Of a stretch of DNA of 52,144 nucleotides, positions 1-15,997 are shown piece after piece. The notes under the pieces are model-generated. The model ran no database searches, was not told where the DNA came from, and worked only from the letters and a program-made list of their open reading frames with translations. This DNA is from Phreatobacter sp. (GTDB lineage Bacteria; Pseudomonadota; Alphaproteobacteria; Rhizobiales; Phreatobacteraceae), in NCBI RefSeq assembly GCF_030691135.1, contig NZ_JAUYFA010000034.1, positions 1 to 52,144 on the forward strand, written 5' to 3'. A program made the position numbers and the translations under genes. Numbering within the stretch: position 1 is the stretch's first letter; every line of letters begins with the position of its first letter.

Positions 1-1619
1 GCGGCGGGTGGCGCTTGTCGCGCGGCGGGCTGCGCGGCTGTGGGCGCTGGCCGATACGGCTCGTATTGCGGCACGGCGGCCGGCACCGGACGGCTGTCGG
101 TGGAGCCTTCCATGATGGGCTGCTTGGTCATGGGAATGCGAAGGGTTCCCGCCGGCAATGTCTCGGTCGGTTGCCCGGTCCGGGTCTCCGGCCGGTTGAT
201 GCGGCCGTTATCGTCGATGGGCGTCGCCGGGATCAGCGCGCGGGCGCCGCCGCCACCGGTCAGGGAGGACTGGCGTCGCGCCTCGTCGGACAGCGGCCAT
301 CCCGCCTTTTCCGCCACGACCTGCACGCATTCGATCAGCGCCGTGTTGGAGGCCACGCGCCGATGCGCCTTCATGTCGCCGTCGCGGTAGGCGTTGAGGA
401 TGCGGAATTCCATCGGGTCCATGCCGCAGGCTTCGGCGCCCTTGTCCATGTGGACCTCGAGCGCGAAATCGACCGCGGTGATTCCGAAACCGCGCATGGC
501 GGTCGAGGGGCAGCGGTTGGTGTAGGCGACATAGATGTCGGCGCTGACATTGGGGATCGTGTAGGGCCCCGGCAGATGCGCGGTGCATTTGATCGCGGCG
601 TAGCTCGACAGCCGCGTATAGGCGCCGGCGTCGAAATAGCTGCGGATGCGGCGGGCGACGATGCGGCCGTCGCGCATGATGCCGTCCTTGATGTAGATGC
701 GCTCGGCACCGCGCGGCGAGCCGTAGAGCATCTCCTCCTCGCGATCGAGGACATAACGGACCGGCTGGCCGGTCATCATGGCGCCGAGGATCGACAGGGG
801 TTCGGTGAGGGAATCGACCTTGCCGCCGAAGCCGCCGCCGACCGTGCCTCCGACGAAATGCAGGCGGTTGGACTCCAGCTTGAGGATCTTGGCCGCCGTG
901 CCCAGCGAGAAGAACAGGCCCTGCGCGCAGGAATGCACGACGAAGCGGTCGTTCTGCTCGGGCGCTGCGATCGAGCCGTTGGTCTCGGTCGGCGCGTGTT
1001 CGATGGGCGACATCTGATAGCGGTCGTCGACGATGAACTCGGCACCGGCGAAGGCCTTCTCGACGTCGCCGAAACGCAGCTTCGAATGATCGTAGCGGTC
1101 GTGATACTCGAAGTAATTGTTCGGATAGGTCTCGTTGACGACGGGCGCGCCGGGCTTCAGCGCCTCCTCGACGTCGAAGACATGAGTCAACACCTCGTAG
1201 TCGACGCGCACGAGCGCCCGCGCGGCCATCGCCTGCTGCTCGGATTCGGCGATGATCGCCACCACCGGTTCGCCCTTGTAGGAGACCTTGCCGACGGCCA
1301 GCGTCGGCTCGTCGTCCTTGCCGAAATTGATCAGGCTCAGGAGGGTGTTCTTGTTCAGCGGCACGTCGGCGCCGCGCAGGATGCGCTTTACGCCCGGCGC
1401 CCGCTCGGCGGCGGTGGTGTCGATGGAGCGGATGCGGGCGTGGTGATGGGGGCTGCGCACCACCTTCAGATGGAGCAGCCCCTCGAAGGCGTGATCGTCG
1501 AAGAAGGGCGAGCGGCCGGTGACGTGGCCGGGCATGTCCTGGCGCTGGGCGCCCTTGCCGACAATGTTGAGATTGTCGTCGCGCTCGGCGGCGAACAGAT
1601 CCTTGCGGAATTCCAGCAT
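1..1619 (-). CDS. Xanthine dehydrogenase-family molybdopterin-binding (large) subunit, partial
   Basis: Catalytic subunit of a three-subunit molybdenum hydroxylase (FAD, 2Fe-2S and Mo subunits encoded in that order). It would hydroxylate a C-H or aldehyde group of an unknown substrate in the cytoplasm. The start is ATG at 1619, 11 bases after the iron-sulfur subunit. The reading frame stays open to the window edge, so 539 N-terminal residues are visible and the C-terminus is missing. The molybdopterin motif GGGFGGK lies near residues 261-267, and an AMRGFG motif follows. The CO dehydrogenase form I motif AYXCSFR is not seen, so this is not a typical CoxL. From about residue 455 the conserved fold gives way to a long Pro/Ala/Gln/Arg-rich stretch that runs to the edge without rejoining the conserved second half. 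The family is certain; the substrate is not. Confidence 0.9.
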   Translation of the reverse strand, partial: MLEFRKDLFAAERDDNLNIVGKGAQRQDMPGHVTGRSPFFDDHAFEGLLHLKVVRSPHHHARIRSIDTTAAERAPGVKRILRGADVPLNKNTLLSLINFGKDDEPTLAVGKVSYKGEPVVAIIAESEQQAMAARALVRVDYEVLTHVFDVEEALKPGAPVVNETYPNNYFEYHDRYDHSKLRFGDVEKAFAGAEFIVDDRYQMSPIEHAPTETNGSIAAPEQNDRFVVHSCAQGLFFSLGTAAKILKLESNRLHFVGGTVGGGFGGKVDSLTEPLSILGAMMTGQPVRYVLDREEEMLYGSPRGAERIYIKDGIMRDGRIVARRIRSYFDAGAYTRLSSYAAIKCTAHLPGPYTIPNVSADIYVAYTNRCPSTAMRGFGITAVDFALEVHMDKGAEACGMDPMEFRILNAYRDGDMKAHRRVASNTALIECVQVVAEKAGWPLSDEARRQSSLTGGGGARALIPATPIDDNGRINRPETRTGQPTETLPAGTLRIPMTKQPIMEGSTDSRPVPAAVPQYEPYRPAPTAAQPAARQAPPA

Positions 1620-1630
1620 CGTCGCCTCCG

Positions 1631-2116
1631 TCAATATGCGCGCGTCGCCTGGCCGCCGCGGGCGGCGGCCAGGATGGCCTCGATAATGGCGTCGTAGCCG
1701 GTGCAGCGGCAGATGTTGCCGGAGATGCCGTCGATCACCTCCGCACGGGTCGGGTTCGGGTTCGCCGTGAGAAGGGCTTTGGCCGCCGTCAGCATCCCCG
1801 GCGTGCAGAAGCCGCACTGGGCCGCGAAATGGTCCATGAAGGCTTGTTGGAGCGGATGCAGGACGGGGCCCTCGGCCATGCCGGAGACGGTCTCGACATG
1901 CTTGCCCTCGCAGGTGGCGGCCAGTGTCAGGCAGGACAGCTGCAAGTCGCCGTCGACCAGCACGGTGCAGGTGCCGCAGGTTCCCTGGCCGCAGCCGTAT
2001 TTGGGGCCGAAATCGTTGAGGCCGCGGCGAAGCAGCGTCAGGAGATTATCGGAGGGGCCGACGAAGGCGGCGCGGTCAGAGCCGTTGAGACGGAACTGGA
2101 CGGGAATCTTGGCCAT
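1631..2116 (-). CDS. (2Fe-2S)-binding small subunit of molybdenum hydroxylase
   Basis: 161 residues, the usual length for CoxS/XdhC-type small subunits. It carries electrons from the molybdenum centre to FAD. The plant-ferredoxin-type cluster is formed by YGCGQGTCGTC plus a downstream Cys. The second cluster is formed by CGFCTPGM and CRCTGY in the helical C-terminal half. I chose ATG at 2116 because GGAGG stands just before it. An upstream start in the same frame would overlap most of the start of the neighbouring FAD gene's 3' end and has no support. The gene sits 10 bases after the FAD subunit and 11 bases before the large subunit, so co-translation of the complex is likely. Confidence 0.95.
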   Translation of the reverse strand: MAKIPVQFRLNGSDRAAFVGPSDNLLTLLRRGLNDFGPKYGCGQGTCGTCTVLVDGDLQLSCLTLAATCEGKHVETVSGMAEGPVLHPLQQAFMDHFAAQCGFCTPGMLTAAKALLTANPNPTRAEVIDGISGNICRCTGYDAIIEAILAAARGGQATRAY

Positions 2117-2126
2117 GGGTGCCTCC

Positions 2127-2945
2127 TCAGTCCTGGCCCGACAGGAGCCGGGCCAAATGCACCGGCAGGACCTCGCGCCGGTACCATTCGCTGGCGATGG
2201 CATCAGTGACAGGCCGAATGCCCTCCGCTGCCGCGGCCCGGGCGGCGGTGATGGCGGCGGCATCGAGCGCCTTGCCCTCCAGCACGCGCTCCACCGCCTT
2301 CGCGCGCATCGGCACCGGCGCCATGGCGCCGAATGCGACCCGCGCGCCGCTCACCCGGCCGCCCGACATGGGCAGGTGCGCCGCAATCGTCAGGACGGCG
2401 AGGCCCTTGGGCTTGACCCGGCTCACCTTGCGGAAACGGAAGTCGGCGGCATTCTGGGGCGGGGCGAACTGGACCGCCGTCACGAGCCCCTGGCCGCCAC
2501 GCGAGCGGCCGGCGAGGAACTCCTCCAGGGGAACGGCGCGCGGGGCACCAAGGCCCTGCATGACCATGACCTGCGCATCGAGGGCCAGCAACGCGACCGT
2601 GAAGTCGCCATAGGGAGTCTCGGCGAAGAGGTTGCCGCCGATACTGGCCATGTTGCGCACGGCCGGTCCGCCGATGGCCTGCGCCGGAGCATGCAGGTAG
2701 GCGAGCTCGCGGCGCTTCAGGATCGCGGCCATGGTGACGCCGGCACCGAGTTCGACCCGGCCCGACAGTGAGATCTGGCGGTAGGCCGGATCGACGATGC
2801 GCAGGATCAGCCCGTCGGTGAGCCGCCCCTCGTTGATGTCGCGCATGATCAGCGTTCCGCCCGACAGGAGCCGCGCGCTGCGGTCGCCCGCGATGAGGCC
2901 TGCAGCGTCCGAAAGCGTCGATGCGGTGCGGAACTCGAAGGGCAT
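2127..2945 (-). CDS. FAD-binding subunit of molybdenum hydroxylase
   Basis: 272 residues, matching the CoxM/XdhB medium subunit (FAD-binding domain of molybdopterin dehydrogenase followed by the CO dehydrogenase flavoprotein C-terminal domain). The FAD contacts are visible as LLSGGTLI near the N-terminus and as AVRNMASIGGNL around residues 100-112. Its role is to pass electrons from the 2Fe-2S subunit to an external acceptor. It starts 2 bases after the stop of the first SRPBCC gene and precedes the small subunit by 10 bases, so the SRPBCC genes and the hydroxylase appear to be one transcription unit. Confidence 0.93.
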   Translation of the reverse strand: MPFEFRTASTLSDAAGLIAGDRSARLLSGGTLIMRDINEGRLTDGLILRIVDPAYRQISLSGRVELGAGVTMAAILKRRELAYLHAPAQAIGGPAVRNMASIGGNLFAETPYGDFTVALLALDAQVMVMQGLGAPRAVPLEEFLAGRSRGGQGLVTAVQFAPPQNAADFRFRKVSRVKPKGLAVLTIAAHLPMSGGRVSGARVAFGAMAPVPMRAKAVERVLEGKALDAAAITAARAAAAEGIRPVTDAIASEWYRREVLPVHLARLLSGQD

Positions 2946-2947
2946 GG

Positions 2948-3400
2948 TCAGGGCGCTCCACCTTGGAGTTCGGGGAGTTGGCGGACAGCCTCCATCCCGG
3001 CGGAGTAGACGTCGTTGCCGACCGTCTCCGCCAGTTCCGCCTCGCGGCCCGGGGGCGTGGTGAAGCGGCTTTCCCAGTGCCAGAAGCTGCGGTTGCCGTC
3101 GGTCACCGGGAGCAGCCGGATATGGGCGACGTAGTTGAACAGTGGGATCGGCGTGTCGAGAAGGCAGTAGCTGCAGGTCATTTCCAGGTCCGACAGTGAC
3201 AGCAGCTGTTCGCGCAGCTCGCTGCCGTCCTGCAGGGTGAACCTGCGGACGCAGCCGATCCGGTCCGAGGCATGACCACGCTCGATCGCGCTGGCGGCGA
3301 CGATCGGGTGATACTGGTCGTGGCCGTTGAAGTCGCGCAGGACAGCCCAGAGGGCGTCGACCGGCGCGTTGATGATGGTGCTGCGGACGACCTTGGGCAC
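2948..3400 (-). CDS. SRPBCC family protein (copy 2)
   Basis: 150 residues with the START/Bet v 1-like pattern: an N-terminal strand with VRSTIINAPVDALWAVLRDF, a middle segment IGCVRRFTLQDGSELREQLL, and a C-terminal long helix. These folds bind hydrophobic ligands in a cavity. CoxG of CO dehydrogenase clusters belongs to this superfamily and serves membrane docking or quinone transfer, but CoxG has a C-terminal membrane tail that is absent here. The start is GTG at 3400, one base after the TGA of the preceding copy, with GGAGGG placed six bases upstream. The two copies are clearly paralogous. Ligand unknown. Confidence 0.85.
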   Translation of the reverse strand: MPKVVRSTIINAPVDALWAVLRDFNGHDQYHPIVAASAIERGHASDRIGCVRRFTLQDGSELREQLLSLSDLEMTCSYCLLDTPIPLFNYVAHIRLLPVTDGNRSFWHWESRFTTPPGREAELAETVGNDVYSAGMEAVRQLPELQGGAP

Positions 3401-3401
3401 A

Positions 3402-3839
3402 TCACCCTCCGAACGCGCGCTTGAGCGAGTCGAACCCCGCCTGGAACACGTTGGTGCCGATGTTCGAGACGAGGTCCTGCTCCCGCTCCGGCGCGCAGTC
3501 GAACTCGGCGGACCATTCGACGAAGGTGCGATCCTGATCGGTGATCGGGGTCAGCCGCAGCGTCGCCACGTATTCCGTCAGCGGCATGGGGCTGTCGAGG
3601 ATCGAATAGGTGCAGAACATGTCGAAGTCGGACAGGCCCAAAAGCTTCTCGCGCAGCTTGTCGCCGTTGCGCAGCGAGAAGGCCCTGACACAGCCCACCT
3701 TGTCGGCGGGCTCGCCGTTCTCGATCCGGCTCTCCGCCACGGCGGGGACCCAGTTGGGCAGACCGTTGAAGTCGCGCACCCGGGCCCAGACCCGGGCTGC
3801 GGGGGCATTGACGACACTGGAGACATAGACGCGGGCCAT
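3402..3839 (-). CDS. SRPBCC family protein (copy 1)
   Basis: 145 residues, a polyketide-cyclase/dehydrase-like SRPBCC protein with VVNAPAARVWARVRDFNGL at the N-terminus and VGCVRAFSLRNGDKLREKLL in the middle. It aligns over its whole length with the next gene, so the pair arose by tandem duplication. It begins 11 bases after the flotillin stop. Possible roles are binding the hydrophobic substrate or product of the adjacent molybdenum hydroxylase, or a CoxG-like link to membrane electron carriers. The genes are close enough to be translationally coupled. The role is inferred from context only. Confidence 0.85.
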   Translation of the reverse strand: MARVYVSSVVNAPAARVWARVRDFNGLPNWVPAVAESRIENGEPADKVGCVRAFSLRNGDKLREKLLGLSDFDMFCTYSILDSPMPLTEYVATLRLTPITDQDRTFVEWSAEFDCAPEREQDLVSNIGTNVFQAGFDSLKRAFGG

Positions 3840-3850
3840 GATCGTCTGCC

Positions 3851-6466
3851 TTACTTCTTCTCGCCGTCATCTTTGGGCTTGGGCGGCTGGGCATCCTTGG
3901 CCACCCGCTGCATGTCGGACGCCTCGCGCATGAGCCCGCCCATCTTGGCGAGGCTGCCGCCCTCGATGCCGATCTCCTTGAGCACCTGGTCGATCAGCGG
4001 CGCCTGGACGCGGTAGCGCAGGGCCGAATCGATCACCTCGTCGGTCGGCGTGCGCGACGATCCTCCCCCGCCACTGCCAGTGCCCTGCAGGCCGTCGACA
4101 TGGAGGATGCGGATGCCCTCGATCTTCTCCATGGGCTTGACGCTTTCGCGCACGATGCCCTCGATCCGGTCGAGCAGACGGCGACGGAACAGCCCGTAAC
4201 GGGCGCCGTCGGTGAGCACGTTCTCCGCCTCGTAGAGGAGCTTCTGGGCCTCGGCGTCGACGGCCTTGCGCAGTTTGTCGGCCTCGGCGGCGATGCGCAC
4301 CTCCTCGGCGGCCCTCTCGGCGTTGATCACCTCGACGGTCTTGCGGCGCTTGGCAGTCTCGCTCTCCTTCACCGTCTGGACGAGTTCGGCCGCCTCGACG
4401 GCCTTGGCTCTGGCCATCTCGGCCTTCACGGCCGCCGCGCTCTCCTCGAGAGACTTGGCGTAGAGGGTGATCGCCTTGTCCATGGCGGCGTCTTCCACGT
4501 CGCGCTCGCGCTGGATCTCGAGCTTGCGCAGGTCGCGCTGGCGACCGACACGGGCCTCGTCCAGACCACGGTCGGAGGCGATACGGGCGCGCTCCACCTC
4601 TTCGTTGGAGGCAATCTGCGATTCCTGCAGCGCTTGGGCGCGGGCGACCTCGAGTTGCTCGATGGCCCGGCGCCGTTCCAGCCGTGCCGCTTCCAGCGCC
4701 TGCTCGCGCGCGACATCAGCCTTCTCGACCTCCTGCTTGGCGATGATCTCGGTCTGCCGAAGTGTCTTGTCGGCACCCGTGCGCTCGGCGCGCTTGGCGG
4801 CCATGACGATGGCGCGGTCCTCTTCGGCCACCTCCACCGCCTTCTTCTGTTCGATTTGCAGCACTTCGCGGGTCTGCGACGAGGAGATCCGGTCCTCCTC
4901 GATCTTGAGCTCCGCTGCGATGCGCTGCCGCTCGACCGCGTCGCGGCGCTTGATCTCCGCCGCCTCGAGCTGTTCGGTGCTGTTGATCTCCAGTTGCCGG
5001 GTGGCGAGTGCGGAGGCGATACGTTCGGCCGCGGTCGCCTTCTCCTGAGCGATCCGGATGGCCTCGATCGCCTCGCGCGCCGCGATCTCGGCTTCCTCGA
5101 TCGTGCGGTTGCGAGCGATCTCCAGCTTGCGCCTGCCCTCGTCGGAGGCGATGCGATCGGCGGTGAGCGCGATGTCCTGGGCGATCCGGGCCTTCTCCAC
5201 CGCTTCGCGGGCTGCGATCTCAGCCTCGTCGAGCGCCTTGTTGCGTGCGATCTCGAGGTTCTTGATCTCCTTCTCGCGATCGATGCGGTCGGCGCTCACC
5301 TGCGCCTCCTGCGCGATCTTCGAGCGCTCGACCGCCTCCCTCGCGCCGATCTCGGCCTGCTCCAGCGATTTGGTGCGCTCGATTTCCTGGTGGCGGATTT
5401 CGCGGTCCGACGCGATGCGGGCGGCCTGGATAGCCTGATCATTGGCGATCCTGGCGGTCTCGATCTCCTCGCGAGCGGCGATCTCGGCTCCCTCGACGGC
5501 TTTGGTCCTGGCGATTTCCTGCTGGCGAATGTCGCGGTCGGAGGCGATGCGCGCCTCGCTGATCGCCCGCTCATTGGCGATCTTGGCCTTCTCGATCTCC
5601 TCACGGGAGACGATCTGGGCCTGTTCCGCCTCGGTGTCGCGGGCGGCGCGCTCACGGGCGATCTCGGTCCGCTGCACAGCACGCCTGATTTCGATCTCCC
5701 GCTGCTGTTCGAGCCGTGCCGATTCGCTTTCCCGCTCGATGTCGAGCGCCTGGCGCTCGGCCTCCAGATTGCGGGAGCGGATCTTGATCATCGACTCCTG
5801 TTCGATGTCGTTGCGGAGTTTCCGCTTTTCCTCGATCTCCTCGATGATGCGGGTCAGACCCTCGGCGTCGAAGCGGTTGGACGGGTTGAAGTACTGGAGG
5901 TCTGTCTGGTCGAGGTCGGTGATTGCCACCGATTCCAGGACGAGGCCGTTCTGGTTGAGGGCCTCGGCCGCGGCCTCCTTTACGCGCTGGACATAGACGC
6001 CGCGCTGCTCGTGCATCTCCTCCATCGACATCGCCGCGGCGACGGTTCGCAGCGACGAGATGAACTTGCCCGACAGCAGGGTGTTCAGCTGGTCTGGCTG
6101 CAGCGTGCGCCGGCCGAGCGTGGCGGCGGCGATGGCCACCGAGGGCTTGTCCGGCCTGACCCGCACATAGAACTCGGCGTCGATGTCGACCCGCATCCGG
6201 TCGCGGGTGATCAGGGCGGTGTCCTTGCTGCGCGTCACCGCCATCTGCAGGACGTTCATGTTGACCGGGGTGACGTCGTGGATGATCGGCAGGACGAAGG
6301 CGCCGCCGTTGATCACCACCTTCTCGCCGGAGAGGCCGGTGCGGACGAACGACACTTCCTTCGACGATCGCCGGTAGAGCCAGTTGACGAGATAGACGAT
6401 GATCGCAATGGCGATCACGGCGACGATCAGCCAGAGGATCAGGGCTCCGATGAGCTGTCCGGTCAT
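3851..6466 (-). CDS. Flotillin-family protein with long 44-residue repeat coiled coil
   Basis: 871 residues, against roughly 500-560 for typical flotillins. Residues 4-30 form one N-terminal membrane helix. Residues 35-210 are the SPFH domain. Residues about 205-745 are a charged Ala/Glu/Arg coiled coil. The end is a YGLFRRRLLDRI segment, a Gly/Ser linker (793-805) and a Lys/Pro-rich tail. Six consecutive 44-residue units occupy residues 283-546, and two more copies fit at 572-615 and 616-659. Each unit is four 11-residue steps. SPFH proteins assemble into membrane-attached cages or microdomains. No NfeD-like partner gene lies beside it. Here it stands between a TIM-barrel enzyme gene (54 bases upstream) and the SRPBCC pair, so it may scaffold the pathway at the membrane. 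Confidence 0.9.
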   Translation of the reverse strand: MTGQLIGALILWLIVAVIAIAIIVYLVNWLYRRSSKEVSFVRTGLSGEKVVINGGAFVLPIIHDVTPVNMNVLQMAVTRSKDTALITRDRMRVDIDAEFYVRVRPDKPSVAIAAATLGRRTLQPDQLNTLLSGKFISSLRTVAAAMSMEEMHEQRGVYVQRVKEAAAEALNQNGLVLESVAITDLDQTDLQYFNPSNRFDAEGLTRIIEEIEEKRKLRNDIEQESMIKIRSRNLEAERQALDIERESESARLEQQREIEIRRAVQRTEIARERAARDTEAEQAQIVSREEIEKAKIANERAISEARIASDRDIRQQEIARTKAVEGAEIAAREEIETARIANDQAIQAARIASDREIRHQEIERTKSLEQAEIGAREAVERSKIAQEAQVSADRIDREKEIKNLEIARNKALDEAEIAAREAVEKARIAQDIALTADRIASDEGRRKLEIARNRTIEEAEIAAREAIEAIRIAQEKATAAERIASALATRQLEINSTEQLEAAEIKRRDAVERQRIAAELKIEEDRISSSQTREVLQIEQKKAVEVAEEDRAIVMAAKRAERTGADKTLRQTEIIAKQEVEKADVAREQALEAARLERRRAIEQLEVARAQALQESQIASNEEVERARIASDRGLDEARVGRQRDLRKLEIQRERDVEDAAMDKAITLYAKSLEESAAAVKAEMARAKAVEAAELVQTVKESETAKRRKTVEVINAERAAEEVRIAAEADKLRKAVDAEAQKLLYEAENVLTDGARYGLFRRRLLDRIEGIVRESVKPMEKIEGIRILHVDGLQGTGSGGGGSSRTPTDEVIDSALRYRVQAPLIDQVLKEIGIEGGSLAKMGGLMREASDMQRVAKDAQPPKPKDDGEKK
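4829..5620 (-). repeat. Six in-frame 132-bp tandem repeats inside the flotillin gene
   Basis: These encode six 44-residue units (protein residues 283-546). Each starts A-(E/Q)-I and has the pattern AREEIEKARIA, then RIASDREI, then LEIARNKALDE. All six are exactly 44 residues long with no insertion or deletion, so the register is under constraint. The units differ by many substitutions, which points to an old duplication rather than a recent expansion. Confidence 0.85.
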
Positions 6467-6520
6467 GTCATGTTCCTCCCGACGTTTCTGTGCTGGTCTC
6501 GTCGTGTTGGGTGGGCCGTG

Positions 6521-7354: not shown

Positions 7355-9580
7355 TCAGGTCCTTCTGCGCGCGGCGCCGCGGCGGCCCTGGTGCAGCGCG
7401 AGGAACTCACGGACCAGGGCCTGGGCGAAGGCGGGATCGTTGATGTGATGCGGCAGCCGGATCAGCTGCCGGTTCGTCGTGATGCGGACGGTCTCGGCGA
7501 GGGCCTTGAAGAGAGCGGCATCGGCTTCCGGATCGAAGAACGGCTTGCCCGGCGCATCGAGAGACGAGACCCCGCCTTCGGGAATGAGGAACCGCACCGG
7601 CCCCTCCATGAGGTTCAGCTTTTCGCCGATCCAGCGCCCGATGCGGAGATTTTCGTCGACGGTGGTCCGCATCAGCGTGACCTGTGGATTGTGGGGATAG
7701 AGATTTCGGCCGCGATAGTGCTGCGGGACCGTGTCCGGCGCGGCGAAATTGACCATGTCGAGGGCGCCGACCGAGCCGACATAGGGAAGCCTGGTGCGGA
7801 TGATCGCGCCGAAACGGTCTTCGGTCGCCGGCAGGATGCCGCCCATCAGCATGTCGCAGACCTCGGTCGTCGAGACGTCGATGACGCCCTGTAGCAGCCG
7901 TGAGTCCACCAGCTTTTCCATCGAGCGCCCGCCGACGCCGGTGGCATGGAACACGAGCGGTTCCCATTCGGCGCCGATGAGCTTGGCGACCTGCTGGACG
8001 CAGGGCGTCGTCACCCCGAACATCGTCAGGCCGACGAGGGGCCGGTCGCGCAGCGGATCCGGCCGGGGGCTCGCCAGATGGGCCTTGGCCATGGCGGCCA
8101 TGGCATGCGCCGCGTTGCCGAGGACGGCGCGCGAGATGCGGTTCAGCCCCTGAACGTCGGTGACCGAATGCATCATCGTGATGTCGGTGGAGCCGACATA
8201 GTGCGCGACATTGCCGGCGGCCATGGTCGAGACCATGATCTTGGGCACACCGATCGGCAGCATCTGCATGGCGGCGGTCGCGATCGCCGTGCCGCCCGAG
8301 CCGCCCGCCGAGATCAGGCCGAGCACGTCCTGCTGCCCGGCGGTCCAGGTCGCGAAAGCCTCCGTCATCGCCGCGACCGCGGCGCCGCGATCGCCGGAAG
8401 CGAGGCCGGGGAGTGCGCGCGGGGATGCGAGCGCCACCTCCTGCGCCGATACGTCGGCCCCGTGATTGCGTCCCTGGGTCGAGACGTCGACCAGCCGGGT
8501 GCGCAGCCCCGCCGCCTTGATGATGTCGCGGACGAACCGCATCTCCTCGCCCTTGGTGTCGAGCGTCCCGGCGATGATGACATGGGGCTCGCTCGGTCCA
8601 CGGGCGGCCAGGGCAGAAGTGTCGCCGATCACGCGGCCGTCGATGGTGGCGAGCGTCGGGCGCGAGACTGTGCGGGCCGAGGCTTCGATCTGGGCTGCCG
8701 GCACATCCTTCGACCAGCGTGTCGGGGTGACGGGATTGGCCATGTAGATCCGGATCGGCCCCTGGCCGACCGGCGCCGGCACAGCACCCTGCGGCACGCC
8801 CGGCCCCGCCTCCTGACCTCCTGCGTCGGTATCGTCATGGCCGTGTCGGCCGACGCCAAGCAGACGCTGCTGCAGGTCGCGGTCCGCTGCCAGCGTCGCC
8901 GATGCGATGACGCGGTTGATCCGCCCGTTGACCATGATCGCCACCGGGTCGGACATCTGGGTGGCGACACCGATGTTCTGCTCGATGACGAGGATGGACA
9001 CGTCGCCGTCGGCGGCGAGACGGACCAGCGTCTCCTCGACATGGGCGACGATGACGGGGGCCAGCCCCTCCGTCGGCTCGTCCATGATCAGGAGGCGCGG
9101 GTTCATCAGCAGTGCGCGGCTGATGGCCAGCATCTGCTGCTCGCCGCCGGACAGCTGCGCGCCGCCGTTGTTGCGCCGCTCCGCCAGCCGCGGGAACACC
9201 TCGTAGATTCGCTCCGGCGTCCATCGCCCCTTCGGCTTGGACATCAGCCGCAGGTGCTCGTGCACGGTCAGCGAGCGCCACAGCCGGCGGCCCTGCGGCA
9301 CGTAGCCGACGCCGAGCCTGGCGATATCGGCCGGCGCCAGGCCGCCAATCTCCTCGCCCATGAACCGGATCGAGCCCGATGACATCGGCACAAGGCCCAT
9401 GATGGCCTTGCACATGGTGGTCTTGCCCATGCCGTTGCGGCCGACCACGGAGAGCACGCCCGACTGAAGCGTCAGGTCGACGCCCTGAACGGCATGGCTG
9501 CGGCCGTAGAAAACATTGACGCCCTGCAACTGCAGGACCGGAGTTCCGGCCTTCGCAGGGACGGGGAAGCGCTCAGCCAT
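7355..9580 (-). CDS. LivF-type ABC ATPase fused to a Tm-1-like (UPF0261) domain
   Basis: 741 residues with two recognisable parts. Residues 15-245 are a branched-chain-type ABC ATPase: Walker A GRNGMGKT (47-54), signature LSGGEQQ (143-149), Walker B LLIMDEP (163-169). Residues 248-330 are a linker rich in Gly, Pro and Asp at its start. Residues about 332-730 are a Tm-1-like ATP-binding domain beginning [13 protein letters not shown], with [11 protein letters not shown] and [18 protein letters not shown] further on. There is no stop or frame change between the parts. It supplies the second ATPase of the neighbouring LivHMG transporter, so the enzyme-like domain would be held at the membrane. 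It overlaps the end of livG by 8 bases. Confidence 0.9.
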
Positions 9581-10361
9581 GCCCGCCTCCCAGATAGAGT
9601 TCCTGGACCTCCGGATCGTCCTCGATCTCGCTCGGCTTGCCCTCCTTGAAGACCCGTCCGTTGTGCATCATCGTCACGCTCTCGACGACGCGCAGCGCCA
9701 CGTCCATGTCGTGCTCGATGACGATGTAGCCGATATGGGCTGGCAGGGAGGTCAGGATGGTGACCAGATCGCGGCGCTCGGTCGGCGACAGGCCGGCCGC
9801 CGGCTCGTCGAACAGGATGAAGCGGGGAGCGCCCGACATCGCCAGGGCGATCTCGAGCTGCCGCTGCTGGCCATAGGCGAGCTCGCCGACCAGGCGGTCC
9901 TTCACCGCCGTGAGGTGAACAGCCTCCACCAGCATCTCGGCGGCATGGACGAGGGCATCGTCGCTGCGCGGCCGCAGGAGCGAATAGCGGTTCCGCGAGA
10001 CGCCGCGGCAGGCCAGGTAGACATTGTCGAGGACACTGAGGCCGGCAAAGAGCGAGGAGATCTGGTAGGTGCGGCGCAGGCCGCGGCGGATGCGCTCATA
10101 GGGCGGGAAGGCCGTCACGTCCTCGCCGAAGAAGCGGATGATGCCGGAGGTCACCGGGAAATCGCCGGTGATGCAGTTGAACAGGGTGGTCTTGCCCGCA
10201 CCGTTGGAGCCGAGCACCGCACGCCGCTCGCCCGGACGCACCGAAATGGTCACATCGGCGATGGCGGCGAGAGCGCCGAACATCTTGGTGATGCCGCGCA
10301 GTTCAAGCGCATTGCCCGCGTTCATCTGCCCCGGGCGCTCGTTGACGGTGGAGAGGCTCAT
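9573..10361 (-). CDS. Branched-chain-type ABC transporter ATP-binding protein (LivG-like)
   Basis: 262 residues, the normal LivG length. Walker A is GSNGAGKTT, the signature region is [12 protein letters not shown], and Walker B is [16 protein letters not shown] transporters of this class import amino acids, amides, urea or aromatic acids. I chose ATG at 10361 because it overlaps the TGA of the LivM gene by four bases (ATGA). A longer open frame continues upstream but only crosses livM in another frame. It partners with the fused ATPase encoded next. Confidence 0.93.
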
Positions 10362-11434
10362 CGCGGCTGCCCCGTCAGGGGATCGACCCGTCGGCCGGTC
10401 CGGGCGCGCCAGCGGTCCCAGAGGCCGAGCACGCCGTCGGGCGAGAACAGCACCACGGCCAGGAAGCCGATGCCGATGATCAGCTTGAAGCGCTCGGCCG
10501 AGAAGCCGAAGGCGCCGAGGATGTCGGGCGAGAAGGTCTGGAGCATGACGTAGATGAAGGCGCCGACGAAGGCGCCGAGCGGGCGACGCATGCCGCCGAC
10601 GACCGCCACGACCAGCACGTCGATGGCGGAGGATATGCCGATCGTTCCGGGTGCGATCTGGGCATTCTGCCAGACCAGCAGGATCCCGCCCATGGAGGCG
10701 AAGATGCTGGCGAAGGCATGGGCGGCGACACGGTGGGCGGTGACGTTGAATCCGAGGGCCGCCATGCGCCGGGGATTGTCGCGCACGCCCTGCAGCGCGA
10801 GGCCGAAGGGCGAGCGGGAGACATAGACGACGGTGCCGTAGCACAGCGCGGCACACCCCAGGCACAGATAGTAGAATGCCGTGGGATCGCGCCAGTCGAC
10901 GCCGAAAAGCCGGGGCGGCAGAACCAGGTTGAAGCCTGAATAGCCGTTGAAGATCGTGTAGTTCTGGCGGGTGAAATAGAAGAACGCCGCGGCGATCGCC
11001 AGGGTGATCATGATCGTGTAGATGCCCTCGGTCCTGACCGCGAGTGCACCCGACAGGGTGGCGAAGATCGCCGCGATCAGGAAGGCCGCCGGCAGCACGA
11101 TCCACCAGGACAGGCCGAGGCTGATCGACGTCGTTCCCGACGGACCGAGGATGGCCACCATGTAGCCGGCGAGGCCGGCAATGCTCATCTGCAGCAGGCT
11201 GACCATGCCGCCATAGCCGGCGAGGAAGGTCAGGCTGACCGCGATCATGCCGAGGATGAAGGTCCAGCCCATCACCTGGAACAGCCAGAAATTGTTGGCC
11301 ACGAGAGGCATCGCGAGGAGAACCAGGGCGGCGGCCCACCAGGCCGGCGGTATCCGCTCGATCCATGATGTCGGCCCGGCGGTTTTGGTGATGCCCGCGC
11401 TTGCCCGGGGCCCGGCCTGATCAGCCAGCGACAT
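10358..11434 (-). CDS. Branched-chain-type ABC transporter permease (LivM-like)
   Basis: 358 residues, an inner-membrane permease with about ten hydrophobic segments. The first 35 residues are a polar N-terminal extension. The conserved LivM stretch VRDNPRRMAALGFNV lies around residue 220, followed by GGMRRPLGAFVGAF and the C-terminal FSPDGVLGLWDR. It forms the membrane channel with the LivH-type permease, whose gene ends 3 bases upstream. Confidence 0.93.
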   Translation of the reverse strand: MSLADQAGPRASAGITKTAGPTSWIERIPPAWWAAALVLLAMPLVANNFWLFQVMGWTFILGMIAVSLTFLAGYGGMVSLLQMSIAGLAGYMVAILGPSGTTSISLGLSWWIVLPAAFLIAAIFATLSGALAVRTEGIYTIMITLAIAAAFFYFTRQNYTIFNGYSGFNLVLPPRLFGVDWRDPTAFYYLCLGCAALCYGTVVYVSRSPFGLALQGVRDNPRRMAALGFNVTAHRVAAHAFASIFASMGGILLVWQNAQIAPGTIGISSAIDVLVVAVVGGMRRPLGAFVGAFIYVMLQTFSPDILGAFGFSAERFKLIIGIGFLAVVLFSPDGVLGLWDRWRARTGRRVDPLTGQPR

Positions 11435-11437
11435 CGC

Positions 11438-12454
11438 TCACCGCCCCGCGCCCAGAAGGCCCTGTGGCCGGAAAGCCAGGACCGCCGCCATGATCAGGAA
11501 GGTGAAGACCACCGAATAGGTCGGCGCATAGACCAGACCCATCTGTTCGGTGACGCCGATGATGATCGCGCCGATGGCGGCGCCGACGATCGAGCCCATG
11601 CCGCCGACGATCACCACGACCAGACTGGCGAGGAGAAACCGCGTGTCCTCACCCGGCGACAGGGACTGGAATGTGCCTCCGATGATCCCGGCCATCCCGG
11701 CCAGGCCGGCGCCGAAGACGAAGACCGCGAGAAAGACCAGCTGGATGCGCACACCGGAGGCGGCGAGCATCTCGCGATCGTCGACGCCGGCACGGATCAC
11801 CATGCCGAGCGAGGTGCGGTTCAGCACCAGCCACATGGCCAGGCCGATGACGATCGCGGCGACGAGGATCCAGACGCGCACCGCGGGATAGCGGATGTAG
11901 ATGGCTTCGCCGCTGGTCGGATTGATCGACGAGATGATGGGCAGTTCGAGCGGGCCGCGCAGCAGGGCCGGCGCGAGCGTCGTGTAGGATTGGCCGCCCC
12001 AGTACCAGAGCATCAGATCCGCCAGCACGATCGACAGGCCGATGCTGACCAGCGTCTGGCGCAGTTCCTCGCCTTCCATATGGGAGAAGATGAAGCGCTG
12101 CATCATGAGGCCGACGAGACCGACGACGACGAAGACGACGGGAAAGGCGAGGAGCCAGGACCCCGAATAGGTGGCGACCTCGTAGCCGATGTAGCCGCCG
12201 AGCAGGAACAGCGAGCCATGGGCGAGGTTGACGGTCCGCATGAGCCCGAAGATCAGCGTGAACCCCGAGGCGACGAGGAAATAGAGCGCACCGAGCGTCA
12301 CACCGCCGAGCAGGGCGTTCAGAAAGACCCGCTTGCGTCCGACCGCCGCCTCGAGCTCCGCAGGCCATGGCGCGAGGACGAGCCACAGGAAGGCCACCAC
12401 CAGAAGCGCGATCACCAGAGTCCAGAGAGGATGGTTCTTGGCGAACTTTTCCAT
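11438..12454 (-). CDS. Branched-chain-type ABC transporter permease (LivH-like)
   Basis: 338 residues from ATG at 12454. A GTG codon directly before it (12457) could add one residue, and neither has a good ribosome binding site. The protein has an extra N-terminal membrane helix before the usual LivH core. It carries the LivH motifs FGLMRTVNLAHGSLFLLGGY and LVVVIVGGMGSIVGAAIGA and ends FRPQGLLG. It pairs with LivM. It follows the AraC gene after a gap of about 116 bases in which I see no clear promoter. Confidence 0.92.
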   Translation of the reverse strand: MEKFAKNHPLWTLVIALLVVAFLWLVLAPWPAELEAAVGRKRVFLNALLGGVTLGALYFLVASGFTLIFGLMRTVNLAHGSLFLLGGYIGYEVATYSGSWLLAFPVVFVVVGLVGLMMQRFIFSHMEGEELRQTLVSIGLSIVLADLMLWYWGGQSYTTLAPALLRGPLELPIISSINPTSGEAIYIRYPAVRVWILVAAIVIGLAMWLVLNRTSLGMVIRAGVDDREMLAASGVRIQLVFLAVFVFGAGLAGMAGIIGGTFQSLSPGEDTRFLLASLVVVIVGGMGSIVGAAIGAIIIGVTEQMGLVYAPTYSVVFTFLIMAAVLAFRPQGLLGAGR

Positions 12455-12570
12455 CACACCGTCGACACATGAAAGCCCGCGGCACCGTCGCCGCCAGCCC
12501 GACGAAGGCTAGGCCGACCTGCGACAGTCGGCTTTACCGAGGGTCTTTTCTTTCGCGGCCATCACCGGGG

Positions 12571-13407
12571 TCATTGCGCATGGGTCAGGACACTGCGCCG
12601 ATAGGTGCTCGGCGGCACGACGCCGTTGGCGATGAAGAAACGGGAGAAGCTGGCAGGCGTCGAGAAGCCGAGGTCGAGGCCGATATCGGCGACGGTCTCC
12701 TTGCCGAGCGCCAGCCGCTCGATCGCCCGTTCCATGCGCAGCGCGTTCACATAGATGGTCGGTGGCAGGCCGATCTGTTCGCGGAACAGCTTGAAGAAGT
12801 GGGGCCGCGACAGGCCGGCGGCGCGTGACAGGCGCGCCAGATCGACGGGCTCGCCGAGCGCCGCGTCGAGAAGCCGGAGCGCCCGCCGGATGCGGAAGTC
12901 GCGCAGCGGTCTTTCCCGGCCGATGAAATGCTGCCCCTCCGCCGTCCACTGCCAGGTCTGGTCGAAGCAGGCCTGTGTCAGTGCGCTCAGGCGATCCTCG
13001 AAGTCGCCGTCGCTGCCGCGCCTGGCCGACAGGAGCTGGCTGGTATCGGCCAACAGGCGCGCCAGCCTGTCTGAGACTTCGACGCCGACGCGCCCGAAGC
13101 GCAGGATTTCCGAGGCCTGGCAGCTCGCATGGACGAACCAGCCCGGGCGGATGTAGAGCACCAGGGCCAGCACGTTGTCGCCCGCGACGAGCGGCCGGTA
13201 GAAATGCGGCTGCCACGGACTGACCGCCACGGCCTGGCCGGACGACAGCGGATAGGGCCGTCCGTCGACCACGACCTCGGCCGGCGGCCCGTGGATATGG
13301 AAGATCAGATGACCTTCCCGATGCGCATGCGGCGCCATGGCCTTGTCCATCACGTAGAGGCAGACGCGACCAAACACGCCGTGCGCGACAGCGTGAGCAA
13401 CACTCAC
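12571..13407 (-). CDS. AraC family transcriptional regulator
   Basis: 278 residues. The N-terminal half is a cupin-like sensing domain with PHAHREGHLIFHI and SSGQAVAVSPWQPHF. The C-terminal residues about 180-275 hold two helix-turn-helix motifs: LSRAAGLSRPHFFKLFREQ and VADIGLDLGFSTPASFSRFF. It lies inside the catabolic run, on the same strand, between the alcohol dehydrogenase homologue and livH, so it probably controls its own operon in response to the imported compound or a product. Several His residues in the cupin suggest a metal or acid ligand, but this is inference. Confidence 0.92.
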   Translation of the reverse strand: MSVAHAVAHGVFGRVCLYVMDKAMAPHAHREGHLIFHIHGPPAEVVVDGRPYPLSSGQAVAVSPWQPHFYRPLVAGDNVLALVLYIRPGWFVHASCQASEILRFGRVGVEVSDRLARLLADTSQLLSARRGSDGDFEDRLSALTQACFDQTWQWTAEGQHFIGRERPLRDFRIRRALRLLDAALGEPVDLARLSRAAGLSRPHFFKLFREQIGLPPTIYVNALRMERAIERLALGKETVADIGLDLGFSTPASFSRFFIANGVVPPSTYRRSVLTHAQ

Positions 13408-13564
13408 AACGCTCCTCCCTGATGAACGGGCTTGTCTTGTTTTTGTCGCAGCCCTTTTTTCTTGAGCTTAACGCGCGCTTCCGCACTGGCAACGGGCGAT
13501 TCGCCGCGCCTGCCGGTGTTTCTCGCGGCCGTCCGCATCGCCATGCTGGCCTGGCGGCGGCGGC

Positions 13565-14620
13565 TCACCATGCAGCCTCCAGGATGCGCTCGCAGTCGCC
13601 CCGGGTGAGGAGGCGCGGATTGGCGAAAGCGGAGGGATCATCGGCCGCCCTGACGGCGACCTGGGCGAAGCGGTTGGGGTCGGTCGCCGTTTCCCGCAGG
13701 GCCGCGGGCAGGCCGAGGGCACGGGCGAAGGCGGCGAGCTGGATGTCGAGGCCCGTGACCGCGCCGCCCTGGCCCATGGTGTCCGAGAGCGCGCCATAGC
13801 GATCGCCGACGGCCCGGGCGTTGAACCCGACGAAGGCGGCAAGGACGGGCACGTGCAACTCGCCGGGCATCGCCCTTCCCACCAGGTCATCCTCGAGCGG
13901 ATGGGCGAGGGCATCGACGCCGCCGATGCTCTTTTCCATGGCGAGACCGGCGGTCAGGGCTCCTGCGAGCGCCTCGCGCCGTGCCTCTGCATTGTCTGAC
14001 GAGGCGACGGCCAACGGCAGCCACCGGGCGAGGCGGCGGACCGCCTCCAGGGCCAGCCCGTCGGCCGGCGGATTGAAGGACGGGCTGGCATAGGCCTCGA
14101 TGGCGTGGACCAGGATTTCCATCCCCGCCGCCGCCAGCCGTCGCGGCGGAACGTGGGCCAGCGCCGTCGGGTCGGCGATGACCCGGTCGGGCCGCGGGCA
14201 CGACACCGGCTCGCCGTCGCGCGGACGGACCTGCCGGCCGAGGCCGAGGTCGAAAAGGCTGACCGGGATCGCGATGACGGCGCAGATACCGCCGCGCCGG
14301 ACAGCCGCGTCGGCGACGAGGCGCGCCTGACCGATGGCCCCGGCACCGCCGATGGCGATGATGGTCGCGGCTTCGGCGCACTTCAGTTCCTCCGCCACCC
14401 GCGCGATCTCACCGCGCAGCGGCGCGCCGGCACTGACGGTGGTCGTCGCCAGCCGAATGCGCGGCAAGGCGTCCCGGACGCGGGCGAGCGCTTCCGCCGC
14501 TCCGGGTTCGGTGTCGATGAGCACCAGCGCTTTGCCGAGCCGCGAAGCTTCTTCGGGCAGGGCATCGTCGATGGCCCCATCCGCGAACTGGGTTCGCGTG
14601 AGATAGCCGATCAACGTCAT
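13565..14620 (-). CDS. Iron-containing alcohol dehydrogenase/maleylacetate reductase homologue with altered metal site
   Basis: 351 residues, the right length for the family. The N-terminal dinucleotide domain has AIGGAGAIGQARLVADA in place of the usual GGGSxxDxAK. In the metal domain, MEILVHAIEAY keeps one His but has Glu where the family has Asp (Asn in maleylacetate reductases). GVDALAHPLEDDL has Asp where the third metal His normally is, and RAMPGELHVPVLAAF has Pro where the family has the His of HGxxN. Thus at least two of four metal ligands differ. It may use a different metal, no metal, or have another function. The gene follows the substrate-binding protein gene after a stem-loop. Confidence 0.8.
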   Translation of the reverse strand: MTLIGYLTRTQFADGAIDDALPEEASRLGKALVLIDTEPGAAEALARVRDALPRIRLATTTVSAGAPLRGEIARVAEELKCAEAATIIAIGGAGAIGQARLVADAAVRRGGICAVIAIPVSLFDLGLGRQVRPRDGEPVSCPRPDRVIADPTALAHVPPRRLAAAGMEILVHAIEAYASPSFNPPADGLALEAVRRLARWLPLAVASSDNAEARREALAGALTAGLAMEKSIGGVDALAHPLEDDLVGRAMPGELHVPVLAAFVGFNARAVGDRYGALSDTMGQGGAVTGLDIQLAAFARALGLPAALRETATDPNRFAQVAVRAADDPSAFANPRLLTRGDCERILEAAW

Positions 14621-14681
14621 CCGGGCCGCCTTGTCGCCCTGGGTGTCGCCAGGACAATCCGCGAGAGGAACCTGATGGGAA

Positions 14682-14709
14682 AGAGGCCGGCAACGGGGTG
14701 CCGGCCTCT
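14682..14709 (-). terminator. Stem-loop after the substrate-binding protein gene (attenuating terminator)
   Basis: A perfect 11-bp stem (14682-14692 with 14699-14709) with a 6-base loop. On the minus strand it is followed by only a short T run (CTCTTTCCC). It lies 20 bases after the stop of the substrate-binding protein gene. Such a partial terminator would let the binding protein be made in excess over the downstream permeases, which is usual for ABC operons. Confidence 0.7.
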
Positions 14710-14728
14710 CCCAAAGTGTTCCCGTGGG

Positions 14729-15997
14729 TCAGCCGCCGGCGCGCAACCGGGCGCAGTCGACGACGTTGCGGGAGGGCAGTCCGATCGCCCGGTACTGTTC
14801 GGCGGTCATGCCGAGCGTCTGGGTGACGTTGTCGGTCCTGGCGACCATCTTGTTCGTCAGGTTGCCGTCGGTTCCTTCGACGACCTCGTTGATGAAGACG
14901 GTGCCTGTTGCCTGGCGGTTCTCGTTGAGGGTGATCCGGCCGATGGGGCTGTCGAGCTGGATCTTGTTCAGCGCTTCCTTGAAGCGCGCCTGACCGTTGC
15001 TGAGGTCACCGCCGACCGCTTCCAGACCCCGGATCGCGGCGAGGGTGGCGATGTAGTAGCCGAGACCGAAGAGCGAGGGCGTCGGGAAGCGCTGGTTGGC
15101 CGGGAAGCTGTCCTGATAGAGCTTCACATAGGCCTGCCAGGCCGCGTCGGGGTTGTCGACGGCGAAGGGGCCGGAGGTCGGCGTGCCGGTCAGCACTTCC
15201 TTGGCGCGGCCGCGGGCGGTCAGCACCGTCTGGTCGGCCATGATGGTGCCGCCGATGAGCCGCGTGCGCTCGCCGGCCTGCTGGTACTGGTTGAGGAAGT
15301 TGATGGCGTCGGTGCCGCCGAGGCCGAGGTAGATCGCGTCGACGTTGTCGGGCAGCTGGGCGATGATGGCGCCGAAGTCGGCCTGTCCGAGGGGATGCCA
15401 GAAGCGCTGGACGATGTCGCCACCAGCCCGGCAGAAGTCGATCGCGAAGCCCATGAAGTTGGTGTAGCCGAACGAATAGTCGCCGGCGATGCTCACCACG
15501 CGCCGCCAGTTCTTCTGCTTCACCACGTAGCTGCCGAGGCCGAAGCCCCACTGGGCGCCGTCGAGATTGAAGCGGTAGAAATTGGGCGCCGGGTCGACCC
15601 AGGTCGTCTCGAGCGCACCGGAAATGCCGTTGATCACCACATTGCCGGGAATCGTCTTGGCGAAATCGCGCATGGCGATGCCCTCGGAGCCCGACAGGGG
15701 ACCGATGATGATGTCGACGCGATCCTGCTCGATGAGCTTGCGTGCCATGCGGATGGTCGTGTCCGGACGGGTATCCGTCGGGGCGACGACAGTCTCGATC
15801 CGGCGACCGCCGATCGTGCCGTTGATCTGCTTGAGCGCCAGTTCGACGTTGCGGACGCCGTCGGCGCCGCCAGCCGCAAAGGCGCCTTCGAGAGCCACCA
15901 GAATGCCGATCTTGATGGTGCCGCCGCTCTGGGCGAAAGCCGAGCCTGGCAGCAAGATGGCCACGGCGGCAAAAATGGCGAGAATTGTCCTGCGCAT
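14729..15997 (-). CDS. ABC transporter periplasmic substrate-binding protein (branched-chain type)
   Basis: 422 residues with a Sec signal peptide (residues 1-22, cleavage after SAFA). The mature part begins GGTIKIGILVALEGAFAAGG, the common start of the periplasmic binding protein type 1 family that serves LivHMGF transporters. VDIIIGPLSGSEG and GDYSFGYTNFMGFA are family-typical. A good ribosome site (GGGAGGATC) precedes the ATG. It is the first gene of the catabolic run and belongs to the permease and ATPase genes downstream. The ligand cannot be read from the sequence. Relatives bind amino acids, amides or aromatic acids. Confidence 0.93.
   Translation of the reverse strand: MRRTILAIFAAVAILLPGSAFAQSGGTIKIGILVALEGAFAAGGADGVRNVELALKQINGTIGGRRIETVVAPTDTRPDTTIRMARKLIEQDRVDIIIGPLSGSEGIAMRDFAKTIPGNVVINGISGALETTWVDPAPNFYRFNLDGAQWGFGLGSYVVKQKNWRRVVSIAGDYSFGYTNFMGFAIDFCRAGGDIVQRFWHPLGQADFGAIIAQLPDNVDAIYLGLGGTDAINFLNQYQQAGERTRLIGGTIMADQTVLTARGRAKEVLTGTPTSGPFAVDNPDAAWQAYVKLYQDSFPANQRFPTPSLFGLGYYIATLAAIRGLEAVGGDLSNGQARFKEALNKIQLDSPIGRITLNENRQATGTVFINEVVEGTDGNLTNKMVARTDNVTQTLGMTAEQYRAIGLPSRNVVDCARLRAGG

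What the first reader, a model, noticed from the sequence alone, without database searches (positions are those of the whole stretch)
1..15997. A 16-kb one-direction catabolic locus combining a transporter, flotillin, SRPBCC pair and molybdenum hydroxylase
All genes from 15997 to the left edge lie on one strand, many with gaps of 2-11 bases or overlaps. The set is unusual: LivHMG with an enzyme-fused ATPase, a degenerate Fe-type dehydrogenase, an internal AraC gene, a PEP-hydrolase-like barrel, a giant flotillin, two SRPBCC proteins and a three-subunit molybdenum hydroxylase. Known: CoxG, an SRPBCC protein, links CO dehydrogenase to the membrane. Inference: the flotillin and SRPBCC proteins may hold the hydroxylase near the transporter or the quinone pool, so uptake and oxidation are joined in one membrane assembly.
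Basis: partly seen in the sequence, partly recalled or inferred. Interest (0 to 1): 0.78.

Follow-up and report, generated by a model that had tools for sequence, protein, structure and literature searches.

The report
Flotillin-bearing catabolic operon with tailed hydroxylase
This is one end of a conserved bacterial nutrient-breakdown operon that packages an uptake pump, a membrane-scaffold protein and a molybdenum enzyme, and comparative evidence suggests the parts are physically tied together at the membrane.

Summary
The 14 window genes are the front of an operon of about 20: the window stops at a contig end, and the rest (second Mo-subunit half, CoxD- and CoxE-like genes, three hydrolases) opens contig C110. 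Of 80 named loci 59 carry the hydroxylase version; all 48 with full flanks hold the core. The large hydroxylase subunit is split, as in nicotinate dehydrogenase. The coupling idea is partly supported, because several traits go with the flotillin. LivF is fused to UPF0261 (98 of 100 loci with flotillin; 3 of 26 without, all on contigs that end before the flotillin's place). A second SRPBCC type appears, and in a sister operon lacking the hydroxylase it is fused to a quinone-reductase-like enzyme (16 of 16). The Mo subunit ends in a Pro-rich tether and basic peptide (72 of 72 with flotillin, 0 of 11 without; strict RFSSxxGxRRR in 55 of 72). The flotillins are long, and their coils differ mostly by multiples of 11 residues. 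Against it: the SRPBCC proteins match no CoxG model, the s1 type occurs without hydroxylase, the tail arose once, and its partner and the substrate are unknown.

The parts
14729..15997 (-). periplasmic binding protein of a Liv-type ABC transporter (Peripla_BP_6), first gene
   Evidence: orthologue in 47 of 48 full type I loci
13565..14620 (-). iron-ADH-like protein with altered metal ligands (E, H, D, H where D, H, H, H is recalled as canonical)
   Evidence: orthologue detected in 25 of 48 full type I loci
12571..13407 (-). AraC-type regulator, same strand, inside the operon
   Evidence: 46 of 48 full type I loci
11438..12457 (-). LivH permease
   Evidence: orthologue annotated as branched-chain amino acid ABC permease; 48 of 48
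10358..11434 (-). LivM permease
   Evidence: orthologue annotated likewise; 48 of 48
9573..10361 (-). LivG ATPase
   Evidence: orthologue annotated ABC ATP-binding protein; 48 of 48
7355..9580 (-). LivF ATPase fused to UPF0261 (Tm-1-like ATP-binding) N and C domains
   Evidence: fusion in 98 of 100 flotillin loci and 3 of 26 without detected flotillin, those three on contigs that end right after PEP-hydrolase
6521..7351 (-). PEP-hydrolase-like TIM barrel (PF09370), presumed partner of UPF0261
   Evidence: 48 of 48
3851..6466 (-). elongated flotillin (Band_7 + Flot), coil with 11/33/44-residue periodicity
   Evidence: 48 of 48
3402..3839 (-). SRPBCC protein s1 (Polyketide_cyc2)
2948..3400 (-). 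SRPBCC protein s2 (Polyketide_cyc2); in the loci compared, the type seen only with the flotillin
2127..2945 (-). FAD subunit of the molybdenum hydroxylase
   Evidence: 48 of 48
1631..2116 (-). [2Fe-2S] subunit of the molybdenum hydroxylase
   Evidence: Fer2_2 match; 48 of 48
3..1619 (-). N-terminal half of the split Mo subunit plus start of its Pro-rich linker; cut by the contig end. Its C-terminal tail, the second half, CoxD- and CoxE-like genes and three hydrolases lie on contig C110 (L160:1-6529), outside the window
   Evidence: orthologue against solved structures

Best explanation
The locus is the front of one catabolic operon. Shown by sequence: it encodes a Liv-type importer whose ATPase LivF is fused to UPF0261, the PEP-hydrolase-like TIM barrel, an operon-type long flotillin, two SRPBCC proteins, a four-subunit Mo hydroxylase with split large subunit, CoxD/CoxE-like factors, and an amidohydrolase, a metallo-lactonase-like protein and an SMP-30-isochorismatase fusion. 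Inferred pathway: a heterocycle, lactam or cyclic hemiacetal is imported, hydroxylated at a ring carbon or oxidised by the Mo enzyme, ring-opened by the lactonase-like hydrolases, de-amidated by the isochorismatase domain, and a semialdehyde is oxidised by the ALDH that some loci carry. Inferred architecture: the flotillin, seated in the inner membrane, is the scaffold. The hydroxylase is held to it, or to UPF0261/PEP-hydrolase beside the importer, by its Pro-rich tether with a conserved basic end peptide, and s2 serves the oxidoreductase (hydroxylase in type I, a fused quinone-reductase-like enzyme in type II). Uptake, oxidation and perhaps electron transfer to quinone are thus kept together.
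For: Conserved set: 48 of 48 full type I loci hold the core; nine marker genes lie in order on one strand in 47 of 48 (the exception L090 looks like an overextended ORF call). Downstream hydrolases recur: SMP-30 + isochorismatase in 14, amidohydrolase in 13 and MBL protein in 12 of 15 downstream stretches. Split Mo subunit: each half of the Bradyrhizobium orthologue (L154) has its 3hrd chain as best solved structure; the presumed catalytic-Glu motif is in 82 of 82 second halves. Tail: 72 of 72 complete first halves with flotillin + U/P end in Pro-rich linker + R(R/K)R, 0 of 11 without (one, L214, broken), of which 7 have CoxD; strict RFSSxxGxR(R/K)R 55 of 72, an SRFxSGxRRR-like variant 10; last 12 residues 65% identical on average, preceding 60 only 21%. 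LivF-UPF0261 fusion tracks flotillin. SRPBCC-QOR fusion in 16 of 16 type II loci. Flotillin lengths: type I median 961 aa, type II 686, others 567; 791 of 918 coil gaps are multiples of 11. Precedents: flotillin cage (PMC11260169, passages); CoxG-like anchor of another oxidoreductase (PMC11962113, passages).
Against: No interaction, localisation or transcript data. Tail-bearing subunits form one clade, so the tail was gained once and its link to the flotillin is one event, not 72. Flotillin, U/P, the F-U fusion and s2 come together in the hydroxylase loci that have any of them, so presence and absence cannot name the tail's partner. Flotillin length and hydroxylase presence are likewise confounded by ancestry. 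The SRPBCC proteins match no CoxG model. The quinone-reductase part scores 276.8 bits against a cut-off of 348, so it is QOR-like only. In the class sample 7 of 17 PEP-hydrolase genomes have no flotillin beside it. Substrate and the chemistry of UPF0261/PEP-hydrolase are unknown.
Confidence: 0.45

Rival explanations
1. The operon is an ordinary catabolic operon; the flotillin only stabilises the importer or the membrane, and the SRPBCC proteins are ligand-binding or catalytic pathway proteins with no anchoring role.
For: SRPBCC proteins nearer s1 occur beside UPF0261/PEP-hydrolase without hydroxylase or flotillin and with Liv genes, MBL and SDR only (51.0% to s1, 44.7% to s2). Single SRPBCC domains outside flotillin operons are nearer s1 in 7 of 7 type 0 loci where one was found and in 7 of 8 minimal-locus domains, the eighth without a hit; some margins are small. 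In the sister operon the flotillin is kept while the hydroxylase is absent.
Against: Does not explain the tail limited to flotillin operons, the flotillin-linked LivF-UPF0261 fusion or the SRPBCC-QOR fusion.
Confidence: 0.3
2. The SRPBCC pair works as CoxG does: s2 carries or presents quinone so that the Mo hydroxylase (type I) or the QOR-like enzyme (type II) exchanges electrons with the membrane quinone pool; the flotillin is secondary.
For: SRPBCC fused to a QOR-like enzyme in 16 of 16 type II loci; CoxG described as menaquinone-binding and feeding the quinone pool (PMC13240472, passages citing Kropp et al. 2025; the Kropp paper itself was not held); CoxD- and CoxE-like genes in the operon.
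Against: Both SRPBCC proteins match Polyketide_cyc2 and no CoxG model at E up to 0.01; they are only 145 and 150 aa. In Sulfolobus the CoxG-like proteins anchor but are not needed for quinone reduction (PMC11962113, passages). QOR-family enzymes also act on enones (recalled).
Confidence: 0.2
3. The hydroxylase tail is a docking site for the maturation factors CoxD/CoxE rather than for the scaffold.
For: The tailed loci also carry CoxD- and CoxE-like genes (48 and 46 of 48).
Against: 7 of 11 tail-less hydroxylase loci also carry CoxD (6 intact, one broken).
Confidence: 0.05

Closest known systems
Nicotinate dehydrogenase, split Mo subunit (PDB 3hrd)
   Same: Mo subunit split in two polypeptides; each half of an orthologue (L154) finds its 3hrd counterpart as best solved structure
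   Different: The 3hrd large chain is 425 aa and aligned up to its residue 415, leaving no room for such a tail; here CoxD/CoxE-like genes, SRPBCC and flotillin are in the operon
Aerobic CO dehydrogenase cox cluster (coxMSLDEFG)
   Same: M-S-L order, CoxD- and CoxE-like genes, SRPBCC protein near the enzyme
   Different: No AYRCSFR motif in 86 distinct first halves (motif recalled); large subunit split; SRPBCC proteins match no CoxG model. A CoxF gene was not searched for
[quoted passage not shown]
   Same: Mo hydroxylase with a CoxG homologue proposed as anchor (one sentence in PMC11962113; all else recalled)
   Different: No flotillin, UPF0261 or tail known to me (recalled, not tested)
Flotillin / SPFH cages
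   Same: Band_7 + Flot domains, long periodic coil
   Different: Coil about 490 aa in the range analysed against a 186-residue helix in the human structure (PMC11260169, passage); tied to a catabolic operon; coil differences mostly multiples of 11
Plant Tm-1-like protein (UPF0261 + TIM barrel)
   Same: Same two domain families; co-evolution of the two reported (PMC5028733, passages)
   Different: Here on two proteins, with UPF0261 fused to an importer ATPase

Membership tests
Xanthine oxidase-family Mo hydroxylase | Mo-, FAD- and [2Fe-2S]-binding domains | tested here: met
   presumed catalytic-Glu motif (recalled) in 82 of 82 second halves
Aerobic CO dehydrogenase (CoxL form I) | AYRCSFR active-site loop (motif recalled) | tested here: not met
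   0 of 86
CoxG | match to a CoxG family model | tested here: not met
   only Polyketide_cyc2 and Polyketide_cyc at E up to 0.01
CoxG | quinone binding and membrane recruitment of an oxidoreductase | not testable with these tools
   needs biochemistry
Flotillin | SPFH/Band_7 plus Flot domain and a long coil | tested here: met
   domains; periodicity
Flotillin | cage assembly on a membrane | not tested
   a monomer structure job failed and could not be repeated; no solved chain matched by sequence at E 0.001
Split-subunit nicotinate dehydrogenase type | Mo subunit as two adjacent genes | tested here: met
   adjacent in relatives; in the own genome the two halves are known from two contigs
AttKLM/BlcABC lactone module | curated AttM-type lactonase and 4-hydroxybutyrate dehydrogenase | tested here: not met
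   lactonase 39.7 bits against 390 for AttM; Fe-ADH-like 141.3 against 500
NADPH:quinone reductase (type II SRPBCC fusion) | curated model PRK10754 | tested here: not met
   276.8 bits against cut-off 348; best match but below cut-off (one protein)

The most novel reading that the evidence does not exclude
The operon builds a dedicated membrane-seated flotillin compartment for one catabolic enzyme. The split Mo hydroxylase carries a cargo peptide (Pro-rich tether + RFSSxxGxRRR-type end) that loads it into a flotillin cage, whose wall is lengthened in whole 11-residue units to fit the cargo, next to an importer whose ATPase is fused to the next pathway protein. It would be an encapsulin-like cargo system built from an SPFH cage.
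Probability: 0.15. Interest if true: 0.9.

Novelty: new variant of a known kind. Interest (0 to 1): 0.62.

Why it matters
Bacterial flotillins are usually treated as general raft organisers with few defined clients (recalled). Here one flotillin clade is tied to one kind of operon, with a concrete candidate client and a short candidate docking peptide, so the question of what a flotillin holds becomes testable in a non-pathogenic soil bacterium. It also gives UPF0261 and PEP-hydrolase-like proteins, whose families are also the two parts of plant Tm-1, a pathway setting, and adds a tailed, split class of Mo hydroxylase.

Tried and rejected
Chance neighbourhood: rejected (48 of 48). CO dehydrogenase: rejected. 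CoxG proper: not met. s1 touches the Rv0910-family toxin model at 17.8 bits against a cut-off of 100: disregarded. CoxD docking of the tail: made unlikely. AttKLM/Blc lactone module: suggestive mix of Fe-ADH, ALDH and MBL protein, but the models are far below cut-off. Tail peptide in other proteins: among ORFs of loci L038-L156 a tail pattern matched 67 ORFs, all of them Mo subunits; whole genomes were not searched. Solved-structure match for the flotillin by sequence: none at E 0.001. Promoters: no sigma-70-like site in 1-16800 (1.2 expected), which says little at this G+C. Literature: ten searches. No paper holds flotillin + SRPBCC + xanthine dehydrogenase, 'Tm-1-like ATP-binding' gave none, and none of the 20 listed of 33 holds flotillin. 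I take from this only that I did not find the system in that open-access library. My note says the tail is RFSSxxGxRRR in 72 of 72; the recount gives 55 of 72 for the strict form, and the report uses that. The words 'contig end near' were a fixed label; one search shows the coordinates.
Full report
WHAT IS THERE. The window is contig C72 of a genome of 4.2 Mb in 116 contigs; the nearest named relatives are Phreatobacter MAGs with 90-97% identity in the PEP-hydrolase protein. Fourteen genes run leftwards from 15997 to the contig end. Gaps from LivH onward are -8 to 54 bases; the three before it are 108, 157 and 113.

THE OPERON CONTINUES. A search of the own genome with the second Mo half of a relative (L078) found a 98% match at the start of contig C110. 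That contig (L160) begins with the end of the first Mo half (QHGAVRFSSVFGTRRR), then the second half (MoCoBD_2), a CoxD-like AAA protein, a CoxE-like VWA protein, an Amidohydro_2 protein nearest L-fuconolactonase, an MBL-fold protein nearest 4-pyridoxolactonase, AiiA and AttM models (all far below cut-off), and an SMP-30 + isochorismatase fusion. The break falls in the Pro-rich linker, a likely assembly hazard (inference).

CONSERVATION. Of the 80, 59 are type I (flotillin + hydroxylase), 7 type II (flotillin, no hydroxylase, with FAA hydrolase, alpha/beta hydrolase and amidohydrolase, 7 of 7 each) and 14 unclassed. Twelve of those 14 are short or cut contigs (one of them, L130, shows a hydroxylase but fell below the threshold); L151 and L155 are the other two. 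In the 48 type I loci with both 10-kb flanks, LivH, LivM, LivG, LivF, UPF0261, PEP-hydrolase, flotillin, SRPBCC, all hydroxylase subunits and CoxD are in 48 of 48; binding protein 47, AraC 46, CoxE 46, Fe-ADH-like 25, ALDH 8; two SRPBCC domains in 47 and three in one. Nine marker genes were tested for order and strand: 47 of 48 agree, and L090 looks like an overextended ORF call. Of 20 further stretches, 15 lie downstream in type I loci: SMP-30 + isochorismatase in 14 of 15, amidohydrolase in 13, MBL protein in 12; one stretch ends at a contig end, and whether the other misses are real or ORF-call misses was not checked. The two type II stretches show none of the three. Yoonia sp. SS1-5 carries the type I set on a plasmid, with two SDRs and a further FAA hydrolase after it (some genes lack annotation there but were found by profile). 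Variovorax paradoxus VAI-C has a type II operon. In an even sample of 190 genomes of the class, PEP-hydrolase (E up to 1e-60) is in 17, and the flotillin is in the same stretch in 10 of these 17 (in G227 about 5 kb away): 4 type I, 6 type II-like, 7 without. Of 12 genomes of the genus (own included), six have a PEP-hydrolase near the window's in score, one (G003) a distant one, five none.

MODULES. Three simpler arrangements show how the set may have been built. Type 0: split hydroxylase without flotillin or UPF0261, 11 loci (L197-L199, L205-L209, L214-L216), of which 7 have CoxD and 7 an SRPBCC; two are from Nonomuraea and the haloarchaeon Salinigranum. Minimal: UPF0261 + PEP-hydrolase + one SRPBCC, without hydroxylase or flotillin (Azospirillum, Bosea). 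Transporter-only: Liv genes, SDR, MBL and SRPBCC in Roseomonas marmotae. SRPBCC domains outside flotillin operons are nearer s1 than s2: 7 of 7 type 0, 7 of 8 minimal (the eighth, from L055, had no hit and is doubtful), and R. marmotae; some margins are small. Domains nearer s2 (94) all lie in loci with the flotillin.

LINKS SPECIFIC TO THE FLOTILLIN OPERONS. (a) LivF is fused to UPF0261 in 98 of 100 distinct loci with flotillin; the two exceptions start at a contig end (L067, L132). Without detected flotillin it is fused in 3 of 26, and these three contigs end 0 to 87 bases after PEP-hydrolase, before the flotillin's place. (b) In all 16 distinct type II loci the second SRPBCC is fused to a zinc-binding-dehydrogenase-family enzyme; one of them, scanned, is nearest NADPH:quinone reductase. 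(c) Of 86 distinct first Mo halves, three are incomplete and were dropped. Of the 83 complete, 72 of 72 from flotillin loci end in a Pro/Ala-rich linker and R-(R/K)-R; 0 of 11 from type 0 loci do (one, L214, is broken), although 7 of the 11 have CoxD. The strict end RFSSxxGxR(R/K)R is in 55 of 72 and an SRFxSGxRRR-like variant in 10; the rest are near variants, and G at position -5 is in 69 of 72. The last 12 residues average 65% identity, the preceding 60 only 21% ungapped. Tailed subunits form one clade with support 1.0, so this is one gain, presumably kept by selection. (d) The operon flotillins form one clade (support 0.91, rooted on L229) that includes 1 of 14 other flotillins sampled, L223. 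Their lengths are 862-1170 aa in type I (80 loci, some genomes fetched twice), 551-784 in type II (17) and 531-675 elsewhere (13); seven unclassed loci (526-1254) are left out. The coil repeats at 11, 33 and 44 residues, and 791 of 918 internal coil gaps of 5 or more are multiples of 11, in 456 pairs at 65% identity or more out of at most 1500 random pairs tried (pairs not independent).

HOW IT PROBABLY WORKS. Import by the Liv system, ring hydroxylation or aldehyde-type oxidation by the Mo enzyme, hydrolytic ring opening, de-amidation, and oxidation of a semialdehyde is inferred from the families; the ALDH of some loci is nearest 2-oxoglutaric semialdehyde dehydrogenase models, below cut-off (one protein). 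UPF0261 and the TIM barrel have no activity known to me; their co-evolution is reported (PMC5028733, passages). For architecture I infer that the flotillin is the scaffold and that the tether ties the hydroxylase to it or to the importer-side pair. SRPBCC proteins as adaptors have precedent: CoxG-like proteins bring a glycerol-3-phosphate dehydrogenase to the membrane in Sulfolobus (PMC11962113, passages); a coxG mutant of Oligotropha grows more slowly on CO, and CoxD and CoxE serve its enzyme's maturation (PMC4240915, abstract and passages). But s1 and s2 match no CoxG model, so this is 'works like', not 'is'. Human flotillin is a 44-subunit cone-shaped cage with a 186-residue helical wall (PMC11260169, passages); the coil here (about 490 residues in the range I analysed) is much longer.

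LIMITS. No transcripts, interactions or substrate. The tail partner cannot be separated among flotillin, UPF0261, PEP-hydrolase, LivF, s1 and s2, because they co-occur in the tailed loci. The structure job for the flotillin failed and could not be repeated. The Fe-ADH-like protein shows altered metal-ligand columns in the window (E, H, D, H); over 40 sequences the canonical residue is at the four columns in 20, 28, 13 and 22 (ligand positions recalled), so 'degenerate' is supported, and it may be dispensable.

Noticed in passing
window 38956-41079 (-): Ring-opening amidohydrolase of the AtzD/TrzD (barbiturase, cyanuric acid hydrolase) family at residues 350-704, about 23 kb from the operon; link to it unknown.
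   Followed up: no
window 26966-35066 (-): Bacterial alpha-2-macroglobulin next to a penicillin-binding protein with transglycosylase, transpeptidase and BiPBP_C domains, a common pair ('common' recalled).
   Followed up: no
L147:513-2264: PEP-hydrolase domain fused to a weak AAA region and a Fis-type HTH upstream of a type II operon: the TIM barrel may serve as a metabolite sensor in a regulator.
   Followed up: partly
L215 and L216: Split Mo hydroxylase relatives without tail in an actinomycete (Nonomuraea) and a haloarchaeon (Salinigranum).
   Followed up: partly
window 13565-14620 (-): Fe-ADH-like gene diverges fast across loci and often lacks metal ligands, as if kept for another role or decaying.
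   Followed up: partly
L223 / L232 (G284:C100): One flotillin of the operon clade in a genome where the class sample found no close PEP-hydrolase, beside other genes.
   Followed up: partly
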